DNA from: Phytophthora sp. 'mugwort'
Taxonomy: Eukaryota > Oomycota > Peronosporomycetes > Peronosporales > Peronosporaceae
Assembly: GCA_033558025.1 (NCBI GenBank)
Contig: JAUCEF010000005.1
Location: forward strand, 5,580,001 to 5,644,000
DNA length: 64,000 nt
Reading direction: 5' to 3'
Shown here: piece by piece, positions 5,561-26,619 of the stretch
Layout: each line of letters opens with the position of its first letter
How positions within the stretch are numbered: position 1 is the first letter of the stretch
Notes under the pieces: model-generated
Told to the model about the DNA's origin: nothing
The model's input: only the letters and a program-made list of their open reading frames with translations
Database searches by the model: none
Translations under genes and position numbers: made by a program

Positions 5561-5654
5561 ATAAATCGGCACAGTGCCGGAAAATATATTCTGGATGTGT
5601 CAAATAAAGCTAATAGGACACACTCTGGCATTTGCCGGTATTAAGAAGGTTTGC

Positions 5655-8480: not shown

Positions 8481-9642
8481 CACAGAACAAATTTAGGAAA
8501 AAGGAAACGTTGCTTACATTTAGGTTAAGTATACAGAAAAGAAAAAGAAGCTGACCCAGTAAGGGAGCGCATGGAGAGCACGAGGTGCTTCCATGAGCGC
8601 ATGTGCATGTCGAAGCTAGCAAAAGAGAAACAAACAAATATAATCATTCCAAAACGTGCGTCGTTTCCCGCAAGTCCAAGCCTACCTGCTTCCTCCGCCG
8701 CACTGCAAGTGCATAGCCGCCCCGACATCTGGTAGCAGGAGGGAATCCGCGGCTATCACTATCGTCGTTGTCGTCCCGAAAGTGCTGTGGCCGTAAGTGG
8801 TTGTTCCTTGATTGGACACCCAGCTACACATTGCGTGTGGTCATAACTGTAATTTCAGTTTTTGGACAGCGAACGCCGATTGGTGCAAATTTGACCGAAG
8901 GCTGTTGTTAGTGCCTGAGGGCACTCTGACCCGGTTTTTGCATTGGCTCTTATTGAAATTGCTGATCTTGAACCTGCTCCGTTTGTAAGTCCCTATTTAG
9001 TAGGCGTAATTCTTGGCTGGCCGGTAAGTCGGGTGGATCTTGGCAACTTTTGCCCAGCACTCTCTAACAGTCTCGTTGTTTTGACCCGCTTGGGCTAGGT
9101 TATGACTCGAGCAAAACCGTCTGTTGTCCATCAGAAGGACAAGGAGGTTCCGTTACTAGTCGAGTTCTTGCGTTTGTCTGTCGGCGATCCCGATGCTACA
9201 AAGAAAGCGCGCACGGACCTCTACAAGTCGATAACCAAGTCTGATACTATAGGCTTTGGTCAAGCTCGTCAAACCACCCGGCTGTGAACGTGGCGCAGAT
9301 AAACGTCGCATTATGGATGTGCTAATCGACGCACAGACTCAACTTCATCGCGTCAACCACCTCGTCTCGACTGGAATCAAGCGTGTGCTGCGAGAAACCG
9401 AGGTGGGCGAAGAACCTCCGTACTCCAAGTGAAGCGACTCAACGCGTAAACGTGCTAAGCGCGTTCGCCAAGCACTAGAAGGTGGAATGACCTCACCGAA
9501 GGCATCCAAGAAGACCAGAACCGACAAAAACTAGTCGTTCGGAACCTTAGGAGTAGCATATCTATGCCTTATAAAAGTTCCCTTTTATCTCCCATTCAAC
9601 TTCAAGGTTTTCAAGAACTAATCAAGCCGAAAGGATCAAAGT
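8481..9642. other. no recognised gene
   Basis: A 61-codon open frame at 9102-9287 has no recognisable domain. The region directly before the Ty3 gag start (9540-9640) contains a TATAAAA-like stretch and could be the end of an LTR and leader, but I could not identify a matching LTR on the other side. Confidence 0.35.
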
Positions 9643-11165
9643 ATGGCGGATCCTGCACATCTTATACAGAGTATGATCGCTTCGATCCAGAAGCAAACCG
9701 AGCTCATTGAGACTCTCATGCACAGGAAACAGGTCTTTGAGCTCAAACTGGAAAGGGTAAAACTGCCTACGTGCAGCGGTACCATGAACGAGTCATTTGC
9801 TTTATACAAACAGCAGATTGACCAGTATTTTTAAGCTAAGAGTATCGCGTACAAGGAGGCAGCCCTGAAGAAAAGGATGTTGGCCGTGATTGCCGGAACG
9901 CTGAAGCATGGTGCTGCACACTGGTACATGGCCGAAATGGACACTTTTGCGAGTGTCGACGACTACGTTTTGGAGTTGGAAGCCTAGTTAGTACCCAAGG
10001 ACCTGCAGGAGCGTCTGCGAAAGCAGATGAACGACTTGAAAGAGCGCAGTTGCAAAGACTTGCCTGACTATATCAGCAAGTTTCGCGACTTAGTGACCCT
10101 AGTCACAAAGATGGAGGAACTGGACAAAATCAGTTATTTTTTACGCGGACTATCGTCCAGTGTACGTGAAGAGGTTCAATAACGACATTGCGAGACGCTT
10201 GCGAAAGCTGTAACAACAGCGTTAGACTATGATCGATCTCATCCTCACCACGGCCGTTCGGATGAAAAGATTGAGTGTCGAAGTACCGAGCGTACGAACG
10301 AAAACACACGAAAGATGGTGATGCAGCGGAGCCAATGGAAATTAATAGCTTGCATATGCCATCGCGAGATGAGTGCATACGCCGTAACCTGTGTTTCACG
10401 TGTGGAAGCGCTGCTCATAGGGCTAACCAATGTCCTATTTGATCGCAGCAGAAAGTCAGAAAACACCCACCGAGGTATAATCCTCGAATCAACGACGTGG
10501 TCGTGGGCAGGCAAGGATGAACATGGCAAATCAAAATGATGACAACCCTGATGACACCACGGAAACAGTTGTGATGGAGCCTTGAGGATGAGTGTAACGA
10601 ACATCCAAGAGCAATTGGTGATGCAAGAAAAGACCATAGAGTCCGTAAGTACTGAAGCTGAGAAAACTACACTTGCCATGACGGAAGAAATTGGTATGCG
10701 CGAATCGCTAGCAGTTGAAGTACCTGATATATGCGAATCACATTCAGATGAGCAGTTGGTATTGCATGGATCGCAACTGACAAGTACGTCAGATAACAGA
10801 AATGTTAATGCAGCGCAGCTTAGTAGAAGCGGGAATCTGTTTATCCGGAAAGGAAGAATCAACGGAAAGGACCCCCCCCCGAATTCTACTGGATACTGGT
10901 GCCAGTAGGAACATGATCAAGCTAGGTATCGCAACTACTGTGCTGACTTCGCGGAAGTTACAAGCAACAAGGTTCGATGGAACAATGACTGCTAGATAGG
11001 AAGTCCAGCATTTTCAAGTTACGTTAAGATGGACGGCTACGTATTTCCATCCATGGAGCTTGTAGAATGGCAGTTAGCAGAATCACACGAGGTGATCTTT
11101 GGTAAGCCCTGGTTCGCCCAGTGGGTGCCTTCCATAACCTACATAAAACGGTTTAGTAGTAGTCG
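9643..11165 (+). pseudogene. Ty3-type retrotransposon gag-protease remnant
   Basis: Remnant of a Ty3/Metaviridae-like element. The first part (9643-10200) is a retrotransposon gag domain, recognisable from the order HWYMAEMDTF, LVPKDLQERLRKQMNDLKE and SCKDLPDYISKFRDLV, interrupted by TAA near 9832, TAG near 9986 and TAA near 10180. A retroviral-type aspartic protease follows, with the active-site motif ILLDTGASRNMI near 10880-10920 in a shifted frame, and the downstream motif VIFGKPWFAQW near 11095-11130 typical of Ty3 proteases. Reverse transcriptase, RNase H and integrase are absent, so the element is truncated as well as mutated. Confidence 0.8.
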
Positions 11166-11832
11166 CTTTATACCCCTGTTTATCTATCCTTGATCGGCTT
11201 TTATCTCCTATTAAAAGGTCGCGTTTAAATCCGACGTCCAAAACCTCGACCGAATGTTTGCTCTGGCCTGTTGATTATGTCCGGCTTGCAGTTGGTCATA
11301 AGCAGTTAGTATGCCCCTGGGTCGACACAATTTTATGAACGACAAACCTTGCAAAATAATCTCTATAGCTAAGGAAACGAACAGGCGCGAACCCCCCTCA
11401 CACCGCAACTTCCTCTTCTCCCTTGAGCTTCGAGCACGGCGAACTTCCAGCACCGCGCACGTTTCGCCGTGTGTGTGGACGACTAGTGCTATGCGTGACC
11501 ACAGGCTTCTGTGTGTCCTGTCCGTGCTATCACAGAGACGTCGCCGCCTCGCATGAACTCTCGAGGATCTCATGCGTCGAGTTCATGAGGAGCAAATGCG
11601 CGAGGAGCGTGCCCGCATAGTGCGGATCCGGCATTGTTTGACTACACTAGCCCTTCCGAAGCCGGAGTTCGCCCCGTGGGTGTACGTGTGGTACTTCGGT
11701 ACTGACAAAAACATCATGACTGCCACGGGCCTCTGTAAGTGTGTGTGTGTGATGTGGATTTGTGTGATTCGAAATACTAACTGTGTAGCTCGTTTGGGGT
11801 GTTTGTAAGCGCTCTTTCTGCCTTCTCCTCGA
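11166..11832. other. no recognised gene
   Basis: Open frames on both strands have no clear domain. The last part (about 11570-11810) may be the N-terminal region of the Harbinger transposase that follows, since it reads as a basic helix (HEEQMREERARIVRIRH) in the plus strand. A short GT repeat lies near 11736. Confidence 0.35.
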
Positions 11833-12790
11833 GTGCTTCTCAAGGTTCTACATGACACCTCACTTCTCACCTACGGGCGACGGCCCCGCAGGCTGAAGCA
11901 CCACCACCAGGTTCTAGGCCTGCTCATGGCCTTCTACGTTGGCTCGATGGGTTATAAAACGCTGTGGTCCAATTTGGGTGTTCCACACGCTACCTTGAGC
12001 CGAGTGCTCACCGAAGCAGAGGATGCAATGAGCAAAGCTTTGGAAGGGTTCGCGCCTGCTCGGATAGTTTGGCCGACGCTGGCCCGCCAGAAAGTCTTTG
12101 GCTCGTCTTACCGCTGCCCGCGAGCCGCTGCTCCAGCTTACTTGGGGCTTCCTTGATGGGAAGAACTATCGGGTATGGATCGAGCTACAATTTTGTTCAA
12201 AGTACAGCCGCGCTAACGCTGCGATTTCTCTGTGTTTGACTGCGATGCTAGCAGATACATGAGCCGACAAAGAAGGACCTTCAGAATGCGCATTACAATG
12301 GATGGCTTCATACTGTCTATGTCACTGGCACGCTAGGTTTTGGCGCCTATGGGCTAATTGTGCGGGGCTAACACAATTGCCCGGGTAGCTGGAACGACTC
12401 AAACACGGGTTCGGTGTTTTGAGAGAGTCTGGCCGACTCAGAATTCAATCCCGACTCTCGATACGGAATCGTAGCCGACAGTGCATTCCCTTGCGGTGTG
12501 GATATGACAGGGACGGATCCTCACTCCGTTGAAGGATGGAGATCTGAATCGGCGTGTCCCGTCAGTTCGCGCCGTTGCACGGCGAAAGACTGACGCGACA
12601 ACCTCTATCCGCCAGGCAGCAGAATGGGGGATGGGAAGCGTTGAGAAGGTTTTCCACCGGTTAGTGCATCCTCTTCCGTTCGATCAGGCAAAACGTAAGC
12701 TCCGCCTCGATAACCTATCCCGTCTAGCAAACTTCCGTGTCCGCACCGTTGAAGTGAGTCAGATACGCACGACGTGGGTATACGGGAAAG
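11833..12790 (+). pseudogene. PIF/Harbinger DDE transposase remnant
   Basis: Decayed DDE endonuclease of the PIF/Harbinger (IS5-like) group. The N-terminal helix-turn-helix region is open (11833-12156: RRPRRLKHHHQVLGLL, WSNLGVPHATLSRVLTEAED). After a frameshift near 12150 the catalytic domain reads in pieces, including a DGKNYRVWIE segment, a SWNDSNTGSVF segment and RYGIVADSAFP, the motif that carries the second catalytic acidic residue in this family. Stops and shifts make it inactive. The coiled-coil reading frame on the opposite strand downstream may be the companion protein of the same element. Confidence 0.7.
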
Positions 12791-12899
12791 AAGATAACAT
12801 GTAGTACATTCACAAACGTTAGCTGTGACCGTTTCCCTTCCTTCATTTTGGTACTTCCTTTGCATGTGGGGGCGAACATCATCATCATCTGTTCATGCC

Positions 12900-14110
12900 G
12901 CTGACGTGCTTCACTCTGGTCCAACGCCAGTCTCTCTTCGAAGCGCCTCTTGTTCTCCCCCTTCTCGACCTCGCGCTTTGCCTCACGGGCGGCCTCGACC
13001 CGTCGCAGGGTCTTCTCTTAGCTCGCGCGCGGCCTCTAACTCAGCCATCCGATTTTTATCGGCGGCCTCAGCTTCCTCGCGGCGAATCTGTTCCCGTTCG
13101 GCTCGCTCTCGCTTTTCCTCCTCGATTCTTTCTTCTCTTTCTGTGCGACGACATCGTTCTTCAGTCTCCAACTTGCGATCGCTGTCTTTCTGAAAAAGCA
13201 GCAGCATTTTGCATCATTTTGCATCATGTCGTTACCAGCAAAGTTGAGGTTGCTGCCAACCTCTTCGATCTCGCGCTGCATTTCCTCCAAGCGCTGCTTT
13301 GCCCGAACTCTTTTGGCTTTTGCAAAGGAAGCGCGATTCGCCGACGGATCTGGAGAGCGTTTGCCGTTCTCGTTAAGTGCTGTCTGTGATTTGCTCAATG
13401 TTGTCGCGAGTCAACCGCAGGTCTTCTCCACCAAGGCGATTGCTGATGGTGTTCACGTTCCGATATTCGTCAGTCTCGCGCACGTCTGATCGCCGCGGGT
13501 CTCGTTGCAGTGCCGATTCGTCTGGTGTCGCGATGGCGGGAATCGTCTCTCGTCGTGGTCCGCGGCCGTCCAGCAGTACCACCCGAAGCAGCAACCGAGG
13601 AAGATGCAGTCTGGGGTGACTGTTTGGCTAGCACACCCGCGGTAGAAGTTGTTGCGCTATGGCGCAACTGACGATCGACACGGGGTGACGAACGTCGAGG
13701 TGCAGTCTGGGCTGCTTGTCCGTGTCTCGTAGGCGCCGATGGTGTGTGACAGTCGCCCGTAGTTGGGGGCAAGGCGATAGGGGGGGACCGCTTCTGCGTC
13801 GCCGGACTCCGCACCCGACTCGACCTCGTCGTTGTTTTCAGTATCTTCGTCAGACAGATTGTAGTCGTCTGTGAGAATTGCGTCGATGACATCTTGACAG
13901 GTTATCACGGACCCAGGAACGATCGCCATCGGAGTCGATGGAGACGAGTGGGCTTTAAGCCGCTGGCTTCATCTTGGGTCTCTGCGGATTCAACTTCTAC
14001 AGTCTGAAGCGATCCAGTTCCAGTATCGACATCGTCGTCTTCGACAGTTTCCTCGTCGCGATCGCGGTCAGTGTGAGCGAGAACGGAGCTGAAAAACTGC
14101 GCAAGGTGGG
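12900..14110 (-). pseudogene. acidic and coiled-coil protein, probably transposon companion
   Basis: On the minus strand, pieces in changing frames form an acidic N-terminal part (RDRDEETVEDDDVDTGTG near 14060-14000, then TDDYNLSDEDTENNDE near 13870-13830) and a C-terminal Glu/Arg-rich coiled coil (13207-12983, ERCRRTEREERIEEEKRERA). At least three frameshifts separate them. No domain is recognised. Its tail-to-tail position with the Harbinger transposase suggests the DNA-binding companion protein such elements carry, but this is an inference. Its upstream end abuts the viral block at about 14,110. Confidence 0.35.
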
Positions 14111-14317
14111 CTTCCTGCCTCGATAAACCGCAATTTTTTTATCGCTTACGGTGATCTCAAGTATGGCTGGCTCACCATCAGGTGTTTGCGTTGGGAGAAA
14201 GACATTATCTCCTAATACTACGATTTGATCAGCTCTCAAAAGGGTTGAACCTAAAACTTGACTCGGCTCATCATTGAGTAGATTAGTTCTTATTCCTTTA
14301 CTTGAATAGCAACCCAT
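13997..14317 (-). CDS. small PLV protein with N-myristoylation signal, C-terminus displaced
   Basis: The N-terminus MGCYSSKG fits the consensus for N-myristoylation at Gly2 (Ser at position 6) with a palmitoylatable Cys3, as in many membrane-anchored proteins of viruses and cells. The rest to about residue 70 is a mixed beta-type sequence with no family I recognise. From about residue 70 onward the frame runs into sequence shared, in another frame, with the acidic coiled-coil protein next door, so the natural C-terminus was probably lost at the viral junction near 14,110. It is the last gene on the left side of the viral block, 14 bases downstream of the small conserved protein at 14332-14604. 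Function is unknown; a membrane-associated virion or assembly role is an inference. Confidence 0.45.
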   Translation of the reverse strand: MGCYSSKGIRTNLLNDEPSQVLGSTLLRADQIVVLGDNVFLPTQTPDGEPAILEITVSDKKIAVYRGRKPTLRSFSAPFSLTLTAIATRKLSKTTMSILELDRFRL

Positions 14318-14331
14318 GATTCATGTATATC

Positions 14332-14604
14332 TCACCAAAGAATTTTTTTCGAGAACCAGTCGGCTGAATACGGGTGCTCGTTATCGATTGCCCCGTGCCT
14401 CTTATAGTACCTATTCCTGCGCTTTGCATCGTTGTGATCAAACGCGCTGTACGCCTTCAGCGGGGTTGCATATCTATATTGATCGTAAGGCTCACCATCG
14501 CTCCGAATACCTCCAAATGATACAACACGACCGTCGCTAAGCAGAGCGTCGTATTTCTTCAATCGTTTGTTTGATACTCTGAATCTGTAGCTTAATTCCT
14601 TCAT
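14332..14604 (-). CDS. small conserved protein of protist DNA viruses, unknown function
   Basis: A 90-residue basic protein, intact. It matches a small family I know from PLVs, virophage relatives and giant viruses: a KKYDALL...GRVVSFGG start, a central DHNDAKRRNRYYKRHG stretch, and an aromatic C-terminus ending SKKILW. The family resembles the one catalogued as DUF5754, although I cannot verify the accession here. No enzymatic motif is visible. Its start codon overlaps the end of the fibre gene by 4 bases (14601-14604), which supports co-transcription of the two genes leftward from the divergent promoter at 16.4 kb. Confidence 0.65.
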   Translation of the reverse strand: MKELSYRFRVSNKRLKKYDALLSDGRVVSFGGIRSDGEPYDQYRYATPLKAYSAFDHNDAKRRNRYYKRHGAIDNEHPYSADWFSKKILW

Positions 14605-16364
14605 GCTTGTTCTATACTACTCAGTCGAGTTTTTAAATCGGCTACTTCAGTCAATAGATGCTGGATCATCTTGAGGTTGTATGCCGCTATTCGACTATAA
14701 TCGACATTGAGCTGTTGTTTTGCTGGCTCAAGCGTTGGGCCCTCTTCTTCCTCGATATCATCACGATAAAATACACTAATCACATCAGTCAGATGAGCAG
14801 AGACTAAGTCCTGAGCAATTAAACCAACCTCTTGTCCTTGCCGATTCTCTGACTCAATCCATTCGTAAAGCTTGACCTCAACGCTATCGTAAAGTCTCTT
14901 GATTCGATCAAGAGGCGCAGGGGTGATATTTCTTTTTAAACGGCGATCCGAAGTCATCGCCATAGCAGTACAGCCAATGTAGCCCCCAAAATTAGCAGCG
15001 ACTGAATAAACGATCGGACCAAGTGCTGATTCGGTCACGCCAGAGTCTGTCTGTAGTCTATAAACTGTACTCGATCCAGCGCCGAAAGTGAAACTAACCG
15101 CATTGCTAACGGTTAGAGGAGATGAAGGCGTCGTTGTACCAAGTCCGAGTCGACCACCAGCTGTTAGAATCATTGTAGTCGCGTTTCCCGTTCCAAACCG
15201 AAGATCGTTAAGCTAATATTGCCTATCCAGCTTGCATTGGTTGTAGTACCGTTAGAGCCATTGTGCACCTCTATCTGGAATTCGCACGGGGTGATGTTGG
15301 ATCCAGCGAATCGACACATGCGAGTGTATGACCCATCGAGGTAATCAAACCCAGAGCCTTTAATCTCGGTATATGCGGTCGAGTTGTACGTATTGATCCC
15401 AAGCTCTGTCAGAGGCCCTACGGTCGTGATCGAGCTTTGATTACCGTAGCTCAAAAATCCCGCAAGCGTTCCCGCCGTAATAGTACCAGAAGCAGTGAGT
15501 GAGTTGATGCCAGTGATATTGCCAGTGGAGCCAGAAATGACCATTCTACTCAAATTTTGAGTAGTGAACATGGTTTGTAGTCGTTCCGAAGTAGGCAACC
15601 GAGTTCAGAAGATGATTCAGAACACAGTTGCTTGATCCGCAAGAAGAACTGAAGGTTTGTCCAGTGGTTGTACGACTTGATTGTATAGTACCCGTAGTTG
15701 AGATAGATCCTATGTTTATGATATTTCGTGATGATGATACCACCTGAGTGGATCCAATTGATAGCGAACCAAAATCGCCTGCCGTCCCTGAGACCAATGT
15801 CGTTCCATTGAAGGTTGATCCCGAAACGTACCCAAGACCAGTCATGTCCTTAGAAGCATTGAGTACTACTGCTCGCGATGCGGTTGCTGAACCTTGCGTA
15901 ATATTCAGATAGAGACTTTGGTCGAATGTTGTCCCTGAGAATCTCAGAGTAGGCAAATCGATGCCTATCCCGGAAGAGTCAAAGCTCATACCATAAATAT
16001 TTGTACATGAACGCGTAGAGTCGAGTACAAGAGCTTTACTTGCGGTAGCTGTTCCGGGAGCAATGCCAATCACATATGTCGGAGCACTCACTACAGCGGA
16101 TCCATTCATAATCAGATTAGTACAAGATAGCGTTCCAATGCCGCTGATATCATTATTAGTCCCTGGCACGAGGGAAATTCCTTGTGCAGCTACTCCGGGA
16201 ACGATCCCCGTGGTGTATGTCAGACGGTAGTCGTTCTTGCTGAGATATAGTGTTTGCGCATATTGATAGGTGAGATACCCACTGGCGTCTAACGATAGAT
16301 AGAATGCTGGATTGTAGATCGGTGATATAAATATTGGTTTAGGATATGCGAATCCGGAACTCAT
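14601..16364 (-). pseudogene. PLV tail-fibre-like protein with S74 chaperone domain, two frameshifts
   Basis: About 585 codons in three frames: 16364 to about 15570, about 15570 to about 15190, and about 15190 to 14601. The long first part is rich in Ser, Thr, Gly and short beta repeats (SGIGTLSC-, MTGLGYVSG- and INIGSIST-like units), typical of trimeric beta-helical fibres. Further on, GTGNATTMILTAGG followed by GLGTTTPSSPLTV resembles phage and algal-virus fibre shafts. The C-terminus is an intramolecular chaperone of endosialidase (peptidase S74): TSDRRLKRNI near 14930 holds the Ser-Asp self-cleavage site, followed by YEWIESENRQGQEVGLIAQ and a final coiled coil. Fibres with this domain mediate host attachment in many viruses. 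Both frameshifts leave the protein fold readable on each side, so decay is recent or partly sequencing error. Confidence 0.8.
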
Positions 16365-16410
16365 GTTTTTTGCCTCAATCTATATAGAAGAGGCGATTAA
16401 ACACACGATC
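16365..16410. promoter_or_regulatory. PLV bidirectional promoter between fibre and ATPase
   Basis: Only 46 bases separate the divergent starts of the fibre gene (minus, ATG at 16364-16362) and the ATPase gene (plus, ATG at 16411). The gap holds an AT-rich CTATATAGA element at about 16378-16386 that could act as a TATA box. This is inferred from position and composition only. Confidence 0.4.
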
Positions 16411-17097
16411 ATGAGTGCTATTCCAAACTATGGTGCTTCACTCCCGAAGAAGTTCAAATCTGCCGCTATGGGCGATATCCCAGTGCTCGACATAAAGAAG
16501 CTCTTTAGAATGGTTGTCCTTGGTCCCTCGTTCAGCGGGAAGAACACTCTCTGCATGTTCATTCTCAAGCATTCTCCTCATGTATTTGCTCATCTCACGA
16601 TTATTGCCCGTAATCCACACCAGGAACTATACGAATATCTCCGCGATAAGCTCGAAGATTTCATCACGTTTGCTGATCCGAATTCACCCCCCAAAGTTGA
16701 TCAGGTTCGTCATACACCCATGAGCTCCAATAAACCTGAGCTCGTTATCATCGACGACTATAGCAACGATAAGCTCCTTCAGAAGAACATCTTCTCTCAT
16801 TATATGACCAGAGGACGGCATTTCAAGTTGAGTACCATTTTCCTCTCCCACAGCTACTTTGCAACCGATAAGATGATAAGGTTGAACTCTGAGTATATAG
16901 CGATCCTCAAAGCTAATTCAAAGCGAGATTTACAGATGGTCGTCAGAGATTTCAATATCAAAGGAGTGGATGATCAATCGATTGTCTATTATTACAACAA
17001 AGCAACGGAAAGAAAAGGTCAGATGTTGCTCATCGACTCTGTGAAGGGGGAAATCAGATACAACTTCGATAAGCCAAGTTTATCGATGATCATATAG
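16411..17097 (+). CDS. PLV genome-packaging ATPase (FtsK/HerA type), intact
   Basis: A 228-residue P-loop ATPase that would pump viral DNA into preformed capsids. Walker A is GPSFSGKNT at residues 38-46, with Asn where Ser or Thr usually follows Lys and Thr one position later; Walker B is ELVIIDDY around residue 110. Downstream, RGRHFKLSTIFLSHSYF resembles the sensor/arginine region of A32-like packaging ATPases of PLVs and virophages. I chose the ATG at 16411 because the upstream in-frame residues lie in the divergent promoter and the family starts near the first conserved strand. The next gene starts five bases after the stop codon, indicating a compact viral operon. Unlike most of the neighbouring capsid genes, this one has no frameshift or stop. 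Confidence 0.85.
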   Translation: MSAIPNYGASLPKKFKSAAMGDIPVLDIKKLFRMVVLGPSFSGKNTLCMFILKHSPHVFAHLTIIARNPHQELYEYLRDKLEDFITFADPNSPPKVDQVRHTPMSSNKPELVIIDDYSNDKLLQKNIFSHYMTRGRHFKLSTIFLSHSYFATDKMIRLNSEYIAILKANSKRDLQMVVRDFNIKGVDDQSIVYYYNKATERKGQMLLIDSVKGEIRYNFDKPSLSMII

Positions 17098-17102
17098 TCG
17101 TC

Positions 17103-17969
17103 ATGGCAAGTTTCTTGAAAATTGATAGCACAAACCTCGTAGCAGACGGATACAAATCTACATGGAGATATCAGTTCCCTGGTTCGGCAGACGATTTCCG
17201 CGATGTTGTTTGTGCGATCCAATCAATTAGTCTATTCAACTCTGAGTACAACATCGATGCTATCCAATTCCAGAACACCATTTTCCAGGTTGAGGTTCCA
17301 ACGGCCGCAACCACTTCTACGCTCAGCATAAACCTTCAAGACGGATACTATAGCTACGATGATATTAACAGAAGCACTCAAACAGCTCTGGTCAATGCAG
17401 GAGCTTATCTCATCGATGCATCTGGAAACAATGTTTTCTACATCAAATTAACCGAGAACAGCGTATATTATGCAGCTCAGATCGATTTTTCACCGACGCC
17501 TTCGAGTCTTCCAGTTGGATACACGAGACCTGCTACTGGACTATACGCATCTGGAGGTACTGAATTGCCAACAACGACTCGCGTTCCGAGACTCATCATC
17601 AACAATGCCGCTTTTGGTTCGGTGCTTGGATTGACTACAGCTACATATCCTGCTACCTCGGCGACAGTGGCGAGTGCTCAACTATCAAATATTATTCCTC
17701 AGATCCATCCCACGAGTAGCTACATCGTTCGTTGTGATCTTATCAAAAATGAATACGTCGCATCTGGCGATATCCTGAGTGCTTTTGATAGAGGTGATGC
17801 TGGGATTGGTCAGCTCATTAATTACTAGCCTTCTCAATATGCATGGATGAATTGCCACAATGGTTCGCGTTCAACGATCACGATCAGTATCTATAATCAG
17901 AACGACCAGAAGGTGAAGTTCCGTGATACATCTGTTTCGATCATGCTGTTGCTTCGGCCAAAAAAATAG
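17103..17969 (+). pseudogene. PLV penton-like minor capsid protein, one in-frame stop
   Basis: Reads for 241 codons from MASFLKIDSTN, meets TAG at 17826-17828, and continues in the same frame for 46 more codons to TAG at 17967-17969. The tail after the stop (STITISIYNQNDQKVKFRD, ending SIMLLLRP) is the closing beta-strand pattern of jelly-roll capsid proteins in this virus group, so the true protein is about 288 residues and the TAG is a nonsense mutation, compatible with a C-to-T change of CAG. Early sequence (NSEYNIDAIQFQNTIFQVEV) matches the single-jelly-roll penton proteins encoded beside the ATPase in PLVs. In the virion it would form the fivefold vertices. Assignment as penton rests on size, position and strand pattern. 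Confidence 0.7.
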
Positions 17970-17998
17970 TCTAATCATAGTTTTTTTCTATGCTGAAA

Positions 17999-18722
17999 TC
18001 ACATTCTAAAGGATCCACCAGTCTTCTTCATCGATCGTAGCTTAGCCATGTGGTCCTTCGCCTCTTGCGAACCCTTAGCGAATCTCTTAGTCTTTGGTTA
18101 TGCCGTAGGCTTGGAAACTCCTATACCATAACGACGTCGAACCTCGCCACGAATCGTCTTGATCAAATCACTATGTTCTGGTTTGGTAGCCTTACTCAGA
18201 AGATACTTCTCGCCAGCATCCACAGCATCAGTAAGAACCCCCTTACGCTTTGTGTAAGCTCCCGCATCACTATCGCTGTCGCTGTCATAAACCCCGATAC
18301 CAGTCATAGAGCGGATAGCGGCTCTCGCTGGAATTGCGCCCTGTGGTGCTCCAAGAGCGGTTGCAAGAGCGGGAACAGCGGCGTCGGCAACACGAGACAA
18401 GATCCCAGAGTCTTTGGCAAACTTGAAAGCGGATTTTACTCCTCCCCATATCTTACTCCAAATGCTCGCTCCATGCATTCCTTTGCCTTCCATGTGCTTG
18501 AACGGACAGCCGATCTCTTTGTGAGTGAGTGATAGCTAAGCGAGTTCCTTTACCAGATTTATGTGCTCGAAGAGCTTTAGCGTAAGATTCAGGATGAAGG
18601 TGGAGCGTTGCACCAGACCCTTGCAACTCATCCTTAGTCAAGGACAGTGTGCATGTCTTGAATGCTCTCTTGAGCTTCGCTACTGGGATATCGGATGAAG
18701 CTGAGATTTCTTTGAGCATCAT
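17999..18722 (-). pseudogene. PLV pVI/pX-like cationic minor virion protein, broken
   Basis: Start at 18722 (MMLKEIS...). The N-terminal part has an HPESYAKALRAHKSGKGTRL motif, of a kind found in small basic proteins of PLVs and relatives. At 18521-18532 a gtga unit is present three times; the frame changes here, and removal of one copy would restore it, so a four-base duplication is the likely lesion. The second frame begins with an amphipathic segment (GASIWSKIWGGVKSAFKFAK) and an Ala-rich stretch, like the membrane-active helix of adenovirus pVI/pX-type proteins. TAA at 18098-18100 then interrupts a basic C-terminus (AKGSQEAKDHMAKLRSMKK) that ends at 17999. It converges on the penton gene with about 29 bases between stops. 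Role in endosomal membrane disruption or DNA condensation is inferred. Confidence 0.6.
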
Positions 18723-18751
18723 GGCTATATTCCTTGAGAGAAACACTGAAT

Positions 18752-19136
18752 TTAAATTAAAGAATCGTCAAATTCAGATCTCTGAATCGATTGAGTAGAA
18801 GCATCATATTTTTTGTTTACAATATAGCCATAGCATACACCATACCCCACAATAGTCCCCATAAGTACCTTAATATTGCTTGGGGTTGTATTTACCGATT
18901 CCATACTTGGTAGGTGCAGCTTCGCCCATTGAATCGAAGTACTCACCGCTATCGGCACAGGTCCAATGGCCTACGTCTCGATTAGGAGGTCTCAATAGGA
19001 TCAGATACGTACCTTTCTTCGAAATAGGTTTAACGATTTCATTCGACTCGTATATAGCATCCAGATGTACTCCAATTAAATCTGCAAGTTTAATGAGATC
19101 ATGGTCGCTGGTAATTGGTTTGATAAGATCTGACAT
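18752..19136 (-). pseudogene. PLV maturation cysteine protease (adenain/Ulp1 type), inactivated
   Basis: Starts MSDLIKPITSDHDLIKLADL, the usual opening of PLV capsid-maturation proteases. The catalytic His lies in RDVGHWTC, followed by GEYFDSMGEAAP, the acidic and post-acidic element of clan CE proteases. The frame stops at TAA (18872-18870) immediately before GTYGDYCGVWCMLW, which carries the catalytic Cys; family members have a Gln just before this point, so TAA probably replaces CAA, the oxyanion-hole Gln. A further slip in an A-run near 18810-18820 shifts the last 22 codons to their end at 18752. The starts of this gene and the MCP gene are divergent with only 18 bases between them. The encoded enzyme would cleave capsid precursors in the virion. 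Confidence 0.7.
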
Positions 19137-19154
19137 TATTTTTTATTTCGGCCG

Positions 19155-20903
19155 ATGTATATCAGACAGCATATAGAATCAACTATTAGCGAAACTCCCA
19201 ACTATCCGATCAGTACTTATACCAGAGTTCGCTCCAAAGCGACCCGGAGATCAAGGTATCTTCCGGCAAACGCGTTCCTTTCGTTATCGACCTTAACCAA
19301 GGATCATACCAGAACGGTGTTATCACTATCGATGCTACAGCCCAGCTGAATGGAAGTGAAGGCTTTGCTTATCTCCGTGATGCTTATATTATGCTTCCAT
19401 ACAAGGTCTCGATGAAGAATGGTGGTACTGCCCAGACACTTGCTGCCAATCGTTTCTGCGCTACACTCAAATGTGGCAACTGGAATGTTATTGACAGCAT
19501 GTCACTGGAATTGAATGGGAAAACGATTGTCTCAATGGCTGACTACAAGCTCTTTTGGAACAACGTACGAGCACAGACCGGATACAGCCCTCAGTATGTT
19601 GAAAAGCATGGAGCTGAATCGTTCCTGTACCCGGATGCTGCTCAATCCGTTTCATACAGTGCTGCCACATCATCAACTACTGGAGATGCTTCTCAAATAA
19701 CTCTGCATTCTCTTCCTCATTTGCCACTTCTGCCCCCTCTGGTGGTGCTACGGTTGCTAATGATGGTCTTGTCAGACGTCTATTGTCAATCCTCCTAACG
19801 CTGGAACTGACTTTACTTCAACGTGGCCTTCCCTTGGCGCGGCTGCGGCTTCAACGAACATTGCTAACCAAACTGCTCGCGGCGCCTTCGTCGCTGGAGT
19901 CGCCACAGCTAATGGAATAATGGGAACGTGGAACTAGATGCTCAAGGTGAAACTAACCGACCTCCACCCTATCTTCAAAGAGCTTGATTTGATGGCTAAC
20001 CCTCAGATCCGTCTTCGATTCCGTGTCAATCAGGGTACTTCTGTTGTCGCTGCTGATTCTGGTAAGGGCATGTCTCTAACGAGCACTACTCTTGCATCTG
20101 GTAATACCTGCCCCGTAATGGTCGCCGCTTCATCTACCGGTAATCCAATGGCCGGAGTCCTCGCTGCTTCTGCTGGATTCAGCATTGCATGGGGAGCTGT
20201 TGTCAATTCCCTCGAACCGACTATCGATGGTACCTACATACCATTCACCACATCCCGTCTATATGTGCCGTTTGTACATCTTGAGAACCCTCAGGCAATA
20301 ATCTCAAAGCCTGTTAAGAAGGTTCGATATAACGATTGCTACGCACAGTGGTTACAACCAGCGAGCTGGAATCGGCAAGCAATCAACTCAGTTTAATGCT
20401 GCGTTGATCTCCAACTATCGGCATCCATTAAGAATGCTAAATACGTCATTCTCCTCCCGTTCGCTGAGCAAACGAGTAGCTTTGCTTCTGCCGCTGTCCG
20501 GGAGTTCCAGAGTCCTTTTGACTCGGCTCCTTGGACGATACATCCTGGTTCGAGCATCCGCAACTTCAATGTTCGTATTGGTTCTCAGCAAGTATTTGAT
20601 ATCAGCCATGACTACGACTTCCACCACTTCACGAATGAAATCGCTAAGATTTCAGCGATCAATGGTGATCTTACACCTGAGTTGGTCAATCGCCTTCTTG
20701 ACTATCAGACATGGTCTCTGACTAACCGAGTTCTTGTCGCTGATGTTAACCGTCTAACTGACCGTGATGTTCCTACATCCATTCAGATCCAAGGAACAAA
20801 CGCCGGATGTCAAGGCTGTAATATGCTGGTCATAGTTGTATCCGAACAAGAACTAACCTACGATAGACTAACTGGAGAGATTTTAGACTTTACCACAGCT
20901 TAA
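19155..20903 (+). pseudogene. PLV major capsid protein (double jelly-roll), multiple lesions
   Basis: About 580 codons in changing frames. Recognisable blocks in order are SDPEIKVSSGKRVPFVIDL and SEGFAYLRDAYIMLPYKV (from about 19225), NVIDSMSLELNGKTIV, LTDLHPIFKELDLMANPQIR (19938 onward), IPFTTSRLYVPFVHLENP, and at the end YVILLPFAEQ, INGDLTPELVNRLLDYQ and GCQGCNMLVIVVSEQELTY. These are the conserved blocks of PLV major capsid proteins that build the hexon lattice. I see frameshifts near 19205-19220, 19690, 19770 and 20385 and a TAG at 19935-19937. The start at 19155 is uncertain because of the early shift. The gene converges on the ExoX-like gene with 14 bases between. Confidence 0.8.
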
Positions 20904-20917
20904 AAAAAACTAATATC

Positions 20918-21220
20918 TTAGTTCAATTTTGCTAATAGCTTGGGACATTTATCAATTACAAATTGAGTTTTTCGGAGCCAATCAATGTAATTTGGATCAA
21001 TTCGACTGATCTGTTTGAGGCTCTTACCTCGATATTTACCCCACGTCATCATATACGAATTATCATTGGTTAGAAACTTGGAGTGTAAGAATATTTTTAT
21101 CTCTTCGCTAATATTTTGACTGGGCTGGTTGAATACCCAGCGGCAATAGCCAGGATCAGAAGAATACACTTCTTCGATCAGTTGACCTTTGTATTTTCCA
21201 AAAGTTAATTTGTTCGACAT
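20918..21220 (-). CDS. PLV small protein with two ExoX C-terminal-like repeats
   Basis: A 100-residue intact protein made of two copies of one unit: LTFGKYKGQLIEEVYSSDPG then YCRWVFNQ, and MTWGKYRGKSLKQISRIDPN then YIDWLRKT. The pattern F/W-G-K-Y-K/R-G-x9-DP-x-Y-x2-W is that of the small domain at the C-terminus of exodeoxyribonuclease X-like proteins, also found alone in giant viruses and phages. No nuclease catalytic residues are present, so it is probably a DNA- or protein-binding module rather than an enzyme. I chose the ATG at 21220 (MSNKLTF) over in-frame codons further upstream because the repeat begins there. It is the rightmost viral gene. Confidence 0.65.
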   Translation of the reverse strand: MSNKLTFGKYKGQLIEEVYSSDPGYCRWVFNQPSQNISEEIKIFLHSKFLTNDNSYMMTWGKYRGKSLKQISRIDPNYIDWLRKTQFVIDKCPKLLAKLN

Positions 21221-22011
21221 GTTATTAGTTGGTCTATCTGTATACATACCCTCTTAATTTTTTTTTATAGAAATTTAATTAATTAGGAAGGTATATGGTG
21301 CTGAAGGAGCTTTAACCCTTCTCGGACCTATATAATATCAAATTGATGACCCTAACGTTCTGAGACTATTGATTGGCTGTCTGGTTAGAAACACCTCCTA
21401 GGTATTAAATTCATTAAACCTACTCTCGGCTAATAATTAAGGTGAGAATTACGGAAAATAAAAAACTGCCGGCGTAATGTGCTAGTACATACTACTTAGG
21501 CGGAAGCTGTCGTGTCTGCCCTCAACACGAAAGCTCTGCAGCACCTGCAGGCCCGGCCTCACCGAGCCTGGCTCAGACGACAATCGGTTATTCGGGCAGC
21601 CGGGCCTCTGGGCTCTTGGGTGGCCACGCGATGTAGATTACACTGTAAACAGCAACAGGCAGCGGGTCCGACCATGTGGCTGCTCCCAGCCACCGGGATC
21701 ACTCATCGGCCGTCTGGCCCAGACTCTGGGCTTTGGTTCTTCGTGCGGACAACACCTCGCGCATGTCGCCACCAAGTGAATCCTCCCAAAGACGGGAATT
21801 GATGACGGACAGCTCACTGGAACGTGCTTGCCTTCTTCCGACAGACGGACGGTTCTTGCTAAATCGTCGTTTATTCGTTGCTTTCACCCCTCCCCACACA
21901 AGCGTTGCATTAGATCCAACGTCCCTTATCTCTCTAATCTACGTGTTGTCATTCATTAATTATAATTCAACGCTATCCCTCAGCTTATCAGAGCGGTCGC
22001 TCACTGCGTGA
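21221..22011. other. viral edge and 5' flank of the membrane-F-box gene
   Basis: The first part (to about 21480) is AT-rich, like the viral block, with no gene. The second part is GC-richer. A plus-strand frame from about 21763 to TGA 22009-22011 is in phase with the large gene downstream but shows no recognisable domain and is probably leader sequence. Confidence 0.4.
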
Positions 22012-25000
22012 GTTGACATCTCCGCAACAAGCGCGCGACAGGAAACATTAACTCTGCCTGTCGGCTGCTCTCCTGCCAAGAGTCCACACACATCAAGGAC
22101 GACGTCAACGCGCGCATCCAAGTCGGCCACGGCGTCGGCAGCGACGCCGTGGCCCAAATTGAGAGACCGAAGCGCTCCCACCTACGAACTAGGCGACTTG
22201 CTACTCTCGACCTTGAAGCTGGCGCCCGAGCAGCCTTCAGAGCGACGCGCAACGCGCTCACAAAGCCGCGGCATTCTCGCACTGAACGGAGGCCTGGCAC
22301 TGGTGGCGTGGACCGCTCTGGCGCTCGAAGAGCTGCCGCCGCGCATTTACGACCTTGTGGGCGGCATCCTACTGGTCTCAAGCGCCGGCGGCTGCTACTT
22401 GAGTGTTTGCCACGTGCTGCGTGGCGTTCCAGGGACCAAACGTGTCGGCACGCTGCTTTTGGACCGCTCCAACCCGCGCTCGTGGCCCCGGGAGAAACGC
22501 CGACTAGTTCTCGAGGTCTGCACGTGGGTAGCGAGCGTGCTGTCGCTGTATGTAACTTCGCATTCCGGCTGGATTGCTATTGGAGCTGGCGCAATGGCTG
22601 CACCGGTGTTGGCCTTCGTTAGCGACTTGTTGGCGGCGTATTTGCACCTATTGGAGACGAGGTTGGACCCGCAGCAGATGACAGGCATTAGCGGCATGCT
22701 GTGGCTCAAGGTCGCGCTGTCTTACGTCTGTATGGGGTATATTATATCCGATACGGGGAGGAAGCTGCATGACTACGTTTTTGAGGACGAAGAAAGTGAA
22801 GATAAAGTGCAGCAGCAGTTCCAGTCGGTGGATCAACTCGTGTTCAACTACCTGCTGATCACGCTGGTTGGCGCCTCGCTCATCATTGCAAGTGAATTAT
22901 TGCTGCTGTGTGCACCGACCCGACGTGCTGGCATTGCGCTTCAGGGACGGATTGTGGACGCTCGAAAGAATTGGGAACTGCACTCGCTGCGATCTCTGCT
23001 TGAAGTAACGGGAACATTTGGCGCCACGACGCTGTTCTACAGCACAACGAAGGATATGCTGCTGTCGTTGCAACTTGGCACTTGCTGTGGTGTTCTGCTT
23101 ATCCTCAGTAGCGAGATGTTGGCCTTGGCTAGTCGGCCGCGGTTCGTAAGTCCGCCGAGCCCGCAGGCTGCTGTGGAGATGCCCGCTGACCACTGGGTGA
23201 AGCTCATTCCGGTGGTCGTGATGATGTTATACTTTTTCTTCCAAGTATACGCAGCGATTGTGCGTGCCGCAAGATTACCGTCGAGCTCATTGACGCTCAT
23301 GCTGTGGTTCGTCGCTGTAGCTGCTATCACACTGACTGGTCTCGCGTTATCCGGCAGAAAACCGTCTTTGAAGGAGCTGGCTCGCTTTGGAAGACGACAG
23401 GCAGCCAGGATTTGCGTTGGCACAATCACACTCATCGCGCCCAAGGTCTCGTATGGGGTGCCAGGAGTTTTATTCTCCTGTGTGTTATCAGCTTTCTGCA
23501 TTGCCTTTTCTCGAGATTGCTGGGATGATATTGAAGTGAACGAGGGAGCTCAACTGAAAGAGATCGCGTGCTCTCCGCTACAATCAGCAGACACCCTTTC
23601 AATCTCGAGTATAAGTAAGGGTTGTCCGAGTGGTGCGCCGCAATCGTGGTCTGCACGGGCTTTGAGCTTCGTGAAAGAACGATATCCTCGCTTTTACAAA
23701 AGGGTGAAATGGACGTTTGTGGGTATCATGGTGGTGTCGACACTTGATATGTGCTCGACGTTTCTCGCGGTGATTACCCAGGACAAGCTGTCGCTGTCTC
23801 TTTCACAGTATTCCGCAATCAATGTGGTGGTTTCGGCGTCAGCTGGATATCTGACGAGCCCAGCTCCGTACGAGTTGCATCCCGCGGTGCTGCTCCATAC
23901 TGGTGTGAAGCAGTTCAAGAACAAATGGGTCGTCTTTCCGCTCCACATGTTTGTCGAGACGCTGGTGTTTCTTGGCGTTTCCGTTGGTACTTTTGCAGCT
24001 TCCTCCACAGTTTTTAGCTCGCTCACTCTTGCGGCGCTTTCTGGAATTGTGGTATCTGTCGGAGGTCACTGGGTCTGCTCGTGTCTCCACCTGACGGTTG
24101 GAACGCACACGCGCATGCAGCTAACAGCAACATGCGCGCTGCTTTTTTGTTTGTTCCTGATCACCTATGCGTCGATGGTATCCTTGCTCTCCATCTACCA
24201 CTACTTCGACAGCATTGAGGCGGCATTCTGCCTTGCGTCATTTGCTGGGATTTTCTTTCTGGCTGCAAGCGAAATGTTTCTGATGTGGGAACCATCTCGT
24301 GAGGTGGGCTTGCTGTTGCAGTGCCGGGTTACAAACGCTAAAGAAAACTGGCAGCTGGAGCCACTGCGTTCTTTCTTGGAGCTTTTCACGTGGTTTGCAG
24401 TTATCTGTGGGTCGTTTGCTATGTACGATGATCTCCTGTTGGCACTTCAGCTCGGCACTTTTTCTGGAATTGCCGTCACCCTCTCGGGTGAGTATTTCCG
24501 AAAGAACCGGTCGAAATTAATTCCATGGGGATCAGGTCTACTTGCTGAAGGTGACGTGATTGCTACACCGATATCTTCAATTGGAGGATGTCCTTTTGAC
24601 AATGTTGCTGAGCCAAACCGTGCTCGCCCTCTTCCTGTGATGCTCTTGTTTGCATACATTGGGTCGGGCACTTTCCAGTGGATCTTTGAGAATATGCGTA
24701 GTCTTGAAGTCACGGTGCTTCTGGCAACCATTGCAGGAATCGCTTTCTTGTGTTTCGCCGACATGCTGGTGCTCTTCAAACCCACACGATGGGCTGGTGT
24801 GATCCTGCAGGACCGGTTCATCAACGCAATGCAAAACTGGCGTGAATATCCAGTGCGTTCTTTTGTCGAGTTCGGTTGCTTCATGGGTGTTATCTACGGT
24901 AGCTATGCAATTTATCATGACTTGGTCGTTGCAGTCCAAGTCGGTACTCTATCTGGAATGCTGGTGACGCTTAGTGGAGAACAACTTCGGAATTGCGCAC

Positions 25001-26619
25001 GGGCTATGCCGCTGAACGGTAAGTTGTGTGTTGCGTCTTTTTAGCCGGCTGTCACCCTAACTGGCATTCTTTAATGACGTTTTTTGGTATAATACAGAAG
25101 CCGAAAAAGAAGAGGTGGAGAAAACGCAAATCCTCCCCCTGCCTGTGATGAGTCTGCTGGGCCTTATTGGTGCTGTGGCTTTCAACATTATTTATACGCA
25201 TCTTCGCAGCATTGAGGTGGCCTTTGTCCTCGCCACCACGAGCGGCGTCATTTTTGCTCTGGTCGGTGACATGTTCGTCATCTGGAAACCTACACGCAAG
25301 GTCGGCATGATTCTTCAAGAGCGTTTATTGTACTTCAAACCGAATTTCTCCAGTCATACGGGGCGGTCATGGATGGAAGTAGCTTCGCTCTGTAGCGGCT
25401 GGTATCTATCGTATGTGTTTTTGTGGCCTGGGGATCTTCTCGTCGCCATCCAGTTTGGCACTACGACTGGAATAGTGACGTGTGTTTGTGGAGAGCTGAC
25501 GGTGGAATACCTTGCTGAAGCTGAACGTCGCTTGTTAGCAGGCATATCGGCCAAGTTGGTACAAGAGTAAGTGTTTTTTTCTCTTGAGTTTTCATGAATG
25601 ACACGGGGTACGGTTTAACCGGCTGTATTTTGCTTATACCACCCAGCCCCCAAAACGGCAGCACCTTCTTCAACCTTCCTTACGAAGTTCAGTTTGAAGT
25701 CGCACACTTTCTGACTGCTGAAGACCTTCTAGTGGCGCGAGCTACATGCCACAAGATCAACAGCATGCTGAAAGCCGAGTCTGCTCGCTTTTGGTTGCAT
25801 GCAAGCCTGAGGCGAACAATTCGAGACCACTCTAACCACCGAGGACGCTCTCGAGCTCATAGCATCAGTCATCGCATGGGAAACCGTGCCCGATCGCTCG
25901 TGTATGAAGCCATCACGCTTGTACTGCCCAAAATCGTCGGAGCCAGGCATGTAAAAGTTTGTTCTTGTCTAATGCTGGTGCGCATTGTATTCTGACTGGC
26001 TCAACTTGTGTATTTTCGATATTTTAGAGACCCGGCTCAAGTGCTTACGTCTAGCAATGAAGATAATCGCGCACTGAAATGGGTGTACCTGAACGCTGAC
26101 TGGATTCGGAAGCAGAACCTACCACCATTGCCCACAGAAGTCGAGGTCGCAGGCAGCGCGCTCATCTCGTAAGTTACCTGTGCCGTCATATTTGTTAATA
26201 TGGCTTCATTGTCTAAAATTTGCAATCTGTTTCGCGCAGATTATACGCTGGGGATATTGCTTTCGATGTATTCCGTCATATGCCCGATAAGGTATTGATG
26301 TTTTAGCATTTTTGGGTGAAGTAACTCGTTAACATTCCGTGCTTTTGTGTAGAGCTCTTTGGGGATTATCATCACGCGCAACGAAGACTTCTCTATCGAT
26401 CGCGTCGATGTGCCCCGTGGCGTTTTTGACACGATCCAACGGGACCCTTTCAGTTTCGTGGCTGCCGAGACCTTATCCACGTTAGAGGAGTTTTCGAGTT
26501 GGCATTTAACGGTGGTAGCCTTCGCTACCATGACTCTCATTTTCATCGGACAATTTTCTAGCGATCTCCTTCGCGAATACGTTCTGCCAGCTTCGTTCAC
26601 GTGGTGGGGCGTAAAATGA
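22012..26619 (+). CDS. multipass membrane protein with tandem repeats and C-terminal F-box
   Basis: Exons: open from 22012 to 25018, then 25098-25566, 25647-25946, 26028-26168, 26240-26291 and 26353-26619 (TGA). All junctions keep frame; the intron at 25947 uses a GC donor (GCCAG|gcatgt). The first 1,150 or so residues are hydrophobic and built of a repeat of roughly 110-190 residues. Its core reads P-T/S-R-x2-G-x2-LQ-x-R, then NW, R-S-x2-E, DLL/V-x-A-L/V-Q-x-GT-x-SG; clear copies begin near 22910, 24290, 24780 and 25285, with weaker ones near 22440 and 23900. An F-box follows (FFNLPYEVQFEVAHFL, LLVARATC) near 25670-25800, then a region ending in one more transmembrane helix (LTVVAFATMTLIFIGQF). 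F-boxes bind Skp1, so it may be a membrane-anchored SCF ubiquitin-ligase adaptor. No in-frame ATG occurs before 22594, so the true start is unresolved. Confidence 0.7.

What the first reader, a model, noticed from the sequence alone, without database searches (positions are those of the whole stretch)
14110..21250. Endogenous polinton-like virus with a nearly complete virion-assembly gene set in an oomycete chromosome
Seen: packaging ATPase, penton-like protein, double-jelly-roll MCP, adenain-type protease, pVI/pX-like protein and S74 fibre in about 7 kb of intron-less, AT-richer DNA. Known: this gene set defines PLVs and relatives of Polintons. Inference: a virus infecting oomycetes or their ancestors integrated here. 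All morphogenesis functions are represented while replication genes are absent, which is an unusual way for such an element to be preserved.
Basis: partly seen in the sequence, partly recalled or inferred. Interest (0 to 1): 0.9.

Follow-up and report, generated by a model that had tools for sequence, protein, structure and literature searches.

The report
Truncated virus fossil in oomycete chromosome
The DNA is the decaying right half of a small DNA virus of a known type that has inserted itself many times into this Phytophthora-like genome; its missing half is present in sister copies, and many of these carry Crinkler-type effector genes, which may tie these viruses to how such genes spread.

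Summary
Window 14120-21496 is the right-hand 7.4 kb of a polinton-like virus (PLV), most likely Gossevirus/GKS1. The MCP family folds as a double jelly-roll (best PDB match Sputnik MCP), the penton matches mavirus and adenovirus pentons, the ATPase is A32-like. The copy is decaying: MCP and fibre run through three frames, penton and protease contain stops. Replication genes are missing because the copy is truncated. Its right end is a viral terminus shared with TIR-bounded sisters of 8-26 kb (6-bp target duplications in 9 of 10 pairs) that carry pPolB and, where checked, an RVE integrase; its left end stops at 14119 against a truncated repeat. Oomycete Gosseviruses are published, so this is a new member of a known kind. 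The surprise lies in the missing half: of 25 TIR-bounded elements, 14 carry a Crinkler (CRN) hit and 8 a Uma2 nuclease hit within about 1 kb of one TIR, and 36 of 74 Crinkler hits in the genome are PLV-linked (shuffled mean 1.0, maximum 5). Published work notes Polinton/Maverick repeats flanking CRN genes; here many CRNs lie inside the element.

The parts
14120..21496 (.). right-hand part of an integrated polinton-like virus, most likely Gossevirus/GKS1 type (left half missing)
   Evidence: 87% DNA match to C13:1038277-1045514 over window 14118-21263; terminus pattern at 21464-21496, 3 mismatches
14120..14317 (-). small ORF beginning MGCYSS (reads on past the breakpoint into the repeat)
   Evidence: ORF list; homologous in L018 92% and L015 62%
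14332..14604 (-). DUF5754 small protein
   Evidence: Pfam PF19058 2.8e-7; L018 93%, L015 59%
14601..16364 (-). fibre protein with S74 domain, broken over three ORFs
   Evidence: ORFs 14601-15173, 15170-15598, 15546-16364; S74 5.5e-9; tblastn pieces in different frames
16363..17097 (+). A32-type packaging ATPase, open frame
   Evidence: Pox_A32 3.6e-9; 91% to a Phytophthora lilii protein; dN/dS 0.02-0.05 against 7 sister copies
17103..17966 (+). penton (minor capsid) protein, one in-frame stop at 17826-17828
   Evidence: 83% over 288 of 288 residues of P0243; family model best matches mavirus penton, then adenovirus penton base; stop seen
   Evidence: found in L010, L012, L013, L015, L018; no credible family hit; label unproven
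18813..19136 (-). cysteine protease remnant (adenain/Ulp1-like by resemblance) with in-frame stop
   Evidence: 75% to an L013 ORF over 120 residues; translation; no family hit
19187..20903 (+). double-jelly-roll major capsid protein, two frame changes (near 19687 and 19788)
   Evidence: tblastn of P0002 residues 4-572 of 572 in frames 2, 1, 3; family model best PDB match Sputnik MCP 2.7e-12; start extrapolated from the alignment
20918..21247 (-). ExoX-like C-terminal domain protein (two stretches)
   Evidence: PF20600 4.6e-21; found in L010, L012, L014, L016, L019
21312..21496 (+). right terminal inverted repeat, ending ...TACTACT
   Evidence: 92% over 186 bp to the pPolB-side end of the 8.2-kb element on C4; pattern hit
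11117..14119 (.). truncated repeat copy abutting the virus on the left (not part of it)
   Evidence: 90-91% to five fetched copies, four of which align up to 14119 and one to 14115; at least three share further sequence beyond that point that is missing here

Best explanation
Window 14120-21496 is the right half of an integrated PLV, most likely of the Gossevirus (GKS1) group, with Polinton gene layout in its relatives. Ancestor (inferred from sisters): a linear dsDNA genome of about 18-20 kb with TIRs of roughly 150-190 bp, replicated by protein-primed PolB, inserted by an RVE integrase with 6-bp target duplication, and packaged by the A32-type ATPase into a double-jelly-roll capsid with penton vertices and an S74 fibre. 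After insertion a rearrangement joined the element to a truncated repeat at 14119 and removed the left half (cargo slot, pPolB, integrase, two large ORFs). The rest is now decaying. Shown here: folds of the MCP and penton families; ATPase and S74 families; right terminus; TIRs and target duplications in sisters; pPolB and integrase in sisters; breaks in the window's genes. Inferred: replication and packaging mechanism (from the families), order of events, GKS1 membership.
For: Pfam hits; MCP and penton structure matches; 87% DNA match to the C13:1038277 copy, which has integrase, ORF410 and ORF427 homologues to the left; terminus pattern with 101 hits in the genome and 0 in the reversed control; 25 inverted neighbours 8.2-26.4 kb apart among the 100 listed, 16 of them 17.2-19.7 kb; 6-bp target duplications in 9 of 10 pairs; pPolB family PF03175 with 12 hits, 11 over the cut-off, one in a 1336-residue open frame inside a TIR pair on C5, and the C13 sister's polymerase is 95% identical to the other part of that same frame; integrase rve 1.2e-8 in L032; no match to pPolB, integrase or the two large ORFs in the window; ATPase dN/dS 0.02-0.05 against seven sisters.
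Against: No named Gossevirus sequence was compared; membership rests on published statements about oomycete MCPs and a Sputnik-like MCP model and on the matching results here. Three scans of viral contigs found no confirmed relative. Protease and pVI labels have no profile support. One of ten TIR pairs (C18) showed no target duplication. Three of the seven ATPase sisters are near-identical C12 copies.
Confidence: 0.93

Rival explanations
1. A virion-gene cluster kept by the host for a function (for example as a defence or gene-transfer particle), which is why only morphogenesis genes remain.
For: ATPase frame is open and conserved; the virion genes are still recognisable.
Against: MCP and fibre lie in three frames each, penton and protease have stops. 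The low dN/dS is measured against sister elements, so it reflects selection in the replicating lineage. The missing genes are the left half of the element.
Confidence: 0.03
2. A complete element split by nested insertions, with the left half still present further left.
For: Two repeat copies (8363-11122 and 11117-14119) lie directly to the left.
Against: No match to pPolB, integrase, ORF410 or ORF427 anywhere in the 64-kb window. The repeat beside 14119 is itself truncated at the junction, so this is not a clean insertion. Sequence beyond the window's left edge was not examined.
Confidence: 0.04
3. A fragment of a giant virus or a Maveriviricetes virophage rather than a PLV.
For: MCP model best matches the Sputnik and mavirus MCPs, penton the mavirus penton.
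Against: Sequence relatives are a large family in Phytophthora genomes and metagenomes; sister elements have Polinton-type TIRs, 6-bp duplications, pPolB and, in two examined, RVE. A Sputnik-like MCP model is published for Gosseviruses.
Confidence: 0.03

Closest known systems
Gossevirus (GKS1) group PLVs integrated in oomycetes (Bellas & Sommaruga 2021, PMC7805220; Bellas et al. 2023, PMC10120064; passages seen)
   Same: Virophage-like core set including a cysteine protease, double-jelly-roll MCP with Sputnik-like model, oomycete hosts, TIRs with 5-7 bp target duplications in some, high copy number (up to 299 MCP copies in an oomycete genome).
   Different: This copy is a truncated, decaying right half. 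In this genome 22 of 25 TIR-bounded sisters carry a Crinkler or Uma2 hit beside one TIR. 'crinkler' has 0 occurrences in both papers in the listing, and 'effector' 0 in the main text of PMC7805220; supplements were not seen.
Polinton/Maverick elements of Phytophthora infestans (mentioned in PMC7805220)
   Same: pPolB and RVE integrase in sisters, TIRs, 6-bp duplications.
   Different: Window copy lacks pPolB and RVE.
Polinton/Maverick repeats next to CRN effector genes in P. sojae and P. agathidicida (PMC3726527, PMC9667082; passages seen)
   Same: Same association of CRN genes with these repeats.
   Different: There they are described as flanking or interspersed repeats; here CRN hits sit inside TIR- and TSD-bounded elements at a fixed place and orientation.
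Mavirus and Sputnik (Maveriviricetes virophages)
   Same: MCP and penton folds.
   Different: 9-12% sequence identity in the structural alignments.

Membership tests
Gossevirus/GKS1 PLV | double-jelly-roll MCP of the GKS1 type | tested here: inconclusive
   Double jelly-roll supported for the family (Sputnik MCP 2.7e-12; model pLDDT 70). GKS1 type is inferred from oomycete origin and published statements; no tree with named members was made.
Gossevirus/GKS1 PLV | penton, A32-type ATPase | tested here: met
   Penton fold; Pox_A32 3.6e-9.
Gossevirus/GKS1 PLV | virophage-like cysteine protease | tested here: inconclusive
   Conserved homologue with GHW and Cys motifs by sight but no family hit.
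Gossevirus/GKS1 PLV | TIRs and short target duplication at integrated copies | tested here: met
   Right TIR in the window; duplications of 6 bp in 9 of 10 sister pairs. The window copy's own duplication cannot be tested because its left end is lost.
Polinton/Maverick | protein-primed PolB | tested here: not met
   No match in the window. Present in sisters: PF03175, homologous frames in L032 and L054.
Polinton/Maverick | RVE integrase | tested here: not met
   No match in the window. Present in L032 (rve 1.2e-8) and beside the closest relative.
Maveriviricetes virophage | MCP clustering by sequence with virophage MCPs | not tested
   Only fold similarity was tested.
PLV element with Crinkler cargo (sister copies, not the window) | CRN gene inside TIR and target duplication | tested here: met
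   14 of 25 TIR pairs hold a CRN hit within 1 kb of one TIR (one of them known only); seven of the nine duplication-verified pairs are among them, the other two have Uma2.

The most novel reading that the evidence does not exclude
Crinkler genes in this oomycete are to a large part virus genes: these PLVs keep a cargo slot just inside the pPolB-side TIR that holds either a CRN gene or a Uma2-type nuclease gene, as a module used in conflict with competing viruses or the host. Secreted CRN effectors of Phytophthora would then have been recruited from, or are spread and reshuffled by, these viruses. Among the termini compared, the one nearest to the window's belongs to an element with such a CRN; the window copy has lost that end.
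Probability: 0.45. Interest if true: 0.85.

Novelty: new member of a known kind. Interest (0 to 1): 0.5.

Why it matters
The window copy itself is ordinary: oomycete genomes are known to hold up to hundreds of such viruses (PMC10120064). It matters as an entry point. Following its missing half shows that nearly half of the Crinkler-domain hits in this genome (36 of 74) lie in or beside PLVs, and that 14 of 25 elements whose two ends could be paired hold one at the same place. That turns the published co-location of CRN genes and Polinton/Maverick repeats into a testable statement about vehicle and perhaps origin of a major effector family, and it offers PLV-borne nuclease genes as candidates in virus-virus or virus-host conflict.

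Tried and rejected
Rejected: preserved virion-only element (gene breaks, truncation); element split cleanly by nested insertions (no left half in the window, repeat itself truncated at the junction); chance association of CRN and PLV (shuffles). Led nowhere: three scans of viral contigs with ATPase, MCP and the MCP alignment gave no confirmed relative; Pfam gave no polymerase hit on the separate polymerase pieces of L032 and PHROGs, given two of the three pieces, gave only endonuclease and anti-sigma-factor profiles on one and nothing on the other, so pPolB in that copy rests on its 95% identity to a C5 frame that does hit PF03175 and on motifs recalled from memory; the CRN protein found no solved structure; the S74 plus PLV literature search gave nothing useful; one slot ORF (L062) had no Pfam hit. 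The first dN/dS run had three copies in the wrong orientation; those values were discarded and redone. Limits of the CRN statistics: 100 of 101 terminus hits were listed and used; 122 of 156 ATPase matches were typed in; lengths of C1, C10, C16 and C25 were estimated; the C12 copies include segmental duplicates and are not independent (15 of the 25 Uma2 hits and 4 of the 25 paired elements are on C12); distances go by the low coordinate of each hit; which end is the pPolB side was not determined for the pair at C1:1782325, where neither pPolB nor ATPase was found.
Full report
WHAT IS THERE. The listed genes are present as ORFs or ORF pieces. MCP pieces and penton give no credible Pfam or PHROGs hit, so I modelled the families. 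An MCP alignment of 42 database relatives (42 of the 120 listed) gave a model of moderate confidence (pLDDT 70) whose best PDB matches are the Sputnik MCP (E 2.7e-12, probability 1.00) and the mavirus MCP, followed by NCLDV, Faustovirus and PRD1 double-jelly-roll capsids. A penton alignment of 41 relatives (41 of the 120 listed) gave a good model (pLDDT 92.9) matching the mavirus penton (1.9e-8) and adenovirus penton bases. Those relatives that bear a species name are nearly all Phytophthora, with a few from Plasmopara, Lagenidium and Thraustotheca; many others are unnamed metagenome proteins. The host is therefore probably Phytophthora or close to it; the species was not identified.

THE GENES ARE DECAYING. 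The MCP of a P. rubi element aligns to the window over residues 4-572 of 572, but in three frames. The penton has one in-frame stop, the protease one stop, and the fibre lies in three ORFs. The ATPase, ExoX-like, DUF5754 and pVI-like ORFs are open over the length compared.

BOUNDARIES. DNA search of 12001-24000 against the whole genome shows PLV matches starting at 14118 or later and repeat copies that cover the left part ending at 14119 or before. Right end: sister copies share a terminus ending ...TACTACT and then diverge; the window has it at 21464-21496, with 3 mismatches to the pattern. The pattern has 101 hits in the genome (56 forward, 45 reverse; up to 3 mismatches) and 0 for the reversed control. 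Of the 100 listed, 25 pairs of neighbours face outward and lie 8.2-26.4 kb apart, 16 of them 17.2-19.7 kb. Nine of ten pairs examined have 6-bp target duplications; the C18 pair does not. A further pair, C13:5041495-5061025, shows AACGCT on both sides by eye. The TIR is about 147 bp in C12 ends against the C13 left end and 186 bp at 92% between the window's right end and the opposite end of an 8.2-kb element on C4.

WHY REPLICATION GENES ARE MISSING. The 19.5-kb sister on C13 carries, left to right, a polymerase in several frames with an inserted HNH-like endonuclease (endonuclease VII profile 4e-9), an RVE integrase (1.2e-8), a GC-rich ORF with weak alpha/beta-hydrolase hits, two large ORFs, then fibre, ATPase, penton, pVI-like, protease, MCP, ExoX-like and right TIR. 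Its polymerase pieces give no Pfam polymerase hit themselves, but the first piece is 95% identical to part of a 1336-residue open frame in a TIR-bounded element on C5, and the same frame hits DNA_pol_B_2 (PF03175, 3.8e-8). The left-half genes (polymerase, integrase, two large ORFs) have no match in the window. The window's closest relative (C13:1038277, 87%) has homologues of the integrase and both large ORFs to its left. The C4 element with the similar TIR carries pPolB. At 14119 the neighbouring repeat is itself truncated: at least three of its other copies share further sequence beyond that point. So this is a breakpoint that removed the left half.

SELECTION. Against seven sister ATPases the window's ATPase has dN 0.03-0.06, dS 0.56 to 3.3 (saturated), ratio 0.02-0.05; three of the seven are near-identical C12 copies. 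The lineages diverged under purifying selection, as replicating elements do, rather than as dead duplicates.

COMPARISON WITH THE LITERATURE. From passages seen: Bellas & Sommaruga 2021 describe the Gossevirus group with 15 oomycete elements, virophage-like core genes, TIRs in seven of the integrated elements and 5-7 bp duplications in three, some with pPolB plus RVE (PMC7805220). Bellas et al. 2023 report up to 299 MCP copies in one oomycete genome, oomycete MCPs restricted to Gossevirus clusters (elsewhere 'almost always'), and a Sputnik-like MCP model (PMC10120064). The present element agrees with these in the features tested, except that the replication genes are lost and the protease and MCP group could not be settled. 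It is a new member of a known kind, and a damaged one.

THE SURPRISE OUTSIDE THE WINDOW. The 8.2-kb C4 element has an open 389-residue ORF with a Crinkler N-terminal domain (PF20147, 1.6e-13) between one TIR and pPolB. A family search finds 74 Crinkler hits in the genome. Of these, 17 lie within 1.5 kb of a listed PLV terminus (all 17 pointing inward from it), 23 have pPolB 0-6 kb downstream on the same strand, 27 have the PLV ATPase 8-20 kb downstream on the same strand, and 36 meet at least one of these; shuffled positions give means of 0.3, 0.2, 0.7 and 1.0 and maxima of 3, 3, 4 and 5 (1000 shuffles). The other 38 of 74 show no such link. I fetched the same place in nine further elements and listed ORFs in five of them: four have an ORF of about 295 residues of one family, three of which were tested and match Uma2, 'putative restriction endonuclease' (2.4e-12 to 4.9e-13), with a weak C2H2 finger; the fifth has an ORF without a hit. 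20 of 25 Uma2 hits of the genome lie within 1.5 kb of a PLV terminus (shuffled mean 0.4, maximum 3). Of the 25 TIR-bounded elements, 14 have a Crinkler hit, 8 a Uma2 hit and 3 neither; where pPolB was found in these 22 (21 of them) it lies towards the same end (coordinates). The nuclease nature of the Crinkler C-terminal part is recalled from the literature (REase-type C-termini are described in PMC5289972, passages) and was not shown here.

IS THAT KNOWN? Passages in PMC3726527 say that Polinton is the most abundant repeat in the 2-kb flanks of duplicated P. sojae CRN genes (63 genes), and that elements may carry gene copies inadvertently. PMC9667082 (passages) reports DNA/Maverick and Gypsy repeats between 13 clustered CRN genes in P. 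agathidicida. PMC8204020 (passages) reports four CRN members and many Polinton repeats on one P. parasitica contig with giant-virus genes. None of these passages places CRN genes inside PLV genomes. My searches for crinkler with polinton, Maverick, virophage and PLV terms showed no other paper doing so by title or abstract start, but searches listed only 25 of 166 and 15 of 293 papers, the library lacks many papers, and the 2016 'Transposons to toxins' paper is not held.

MECHANISM, MOST LIKELY. Integration by RVE integrase (6-bp duplications shown, enzyme inferred), protein-primed replication from TIRs (inferred from pPolB), capsid assembly as in mavirus and adenovirus relatives (inferred from folds), then truncation and decay in this copy (shown). 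For the cargo slot the evidence shows position and association only. Whether the virus uses the cargo, the host uses it, or both, is open.

Noticed in passing
L054:4342-5511 (C4:2921744-2922910): Open Crinkler-type ORF inside an 8.2-kb TIR- and TSD-bounded PLV derivative in which pPolB lies next to the protease region, apparently by internal deletion; Crinkler hits at the like place in 14 of 25 paired elements.
   Followed up: partly
L055, L056, L059, L061 (ends of PLVs on C2, C4, C5, C14): ORF of about 295 residues in the same subterminal slot, Uma2-type nuclease with a weak C2H2 finger (L055, L056, L061 tested against Pfam; L059 by sight), in the opposite orientation to the Crinkler genes.
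   Followed up: partly
C12:2332450-2526146: Evenly spaced PLV termini and genes suggesting tandem repeats of PLV-containing units, about 26.4 kb (ATPase at four places) and 29.3 kb (three places); one 29,336-base shift checked at 98-99.8% identity over 2.7 kb. Real amplification or assembly effect not resolved.
   Followed up: partly
L032:7942-8910: GC-rich (0.60-0.68) ORF with signal-like start (by sight) and weak alpha/beta-hydrolase/esterase hits inside a TIR-bounded PLV; possible captured host gene.
   Followed up: no
L032:3343-5394: HNH/endonuclease VII-like domain inserted within the polymerase region; by sight also in L054.
   Followed up: no
window 3307-5654, 8363-11122, 11117-14119: Three repeat families with copies elsewhere at about 79-95% identity; the last two overlap by six bases, suggesting a mosaic of truncated elements.
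   Followed up: partly
window 22159-25044: 961-codon open frame with several similar hydrophobic stretches, no Pfam match; perhaps a host membrane protein right of the virus.
   Followed up: no
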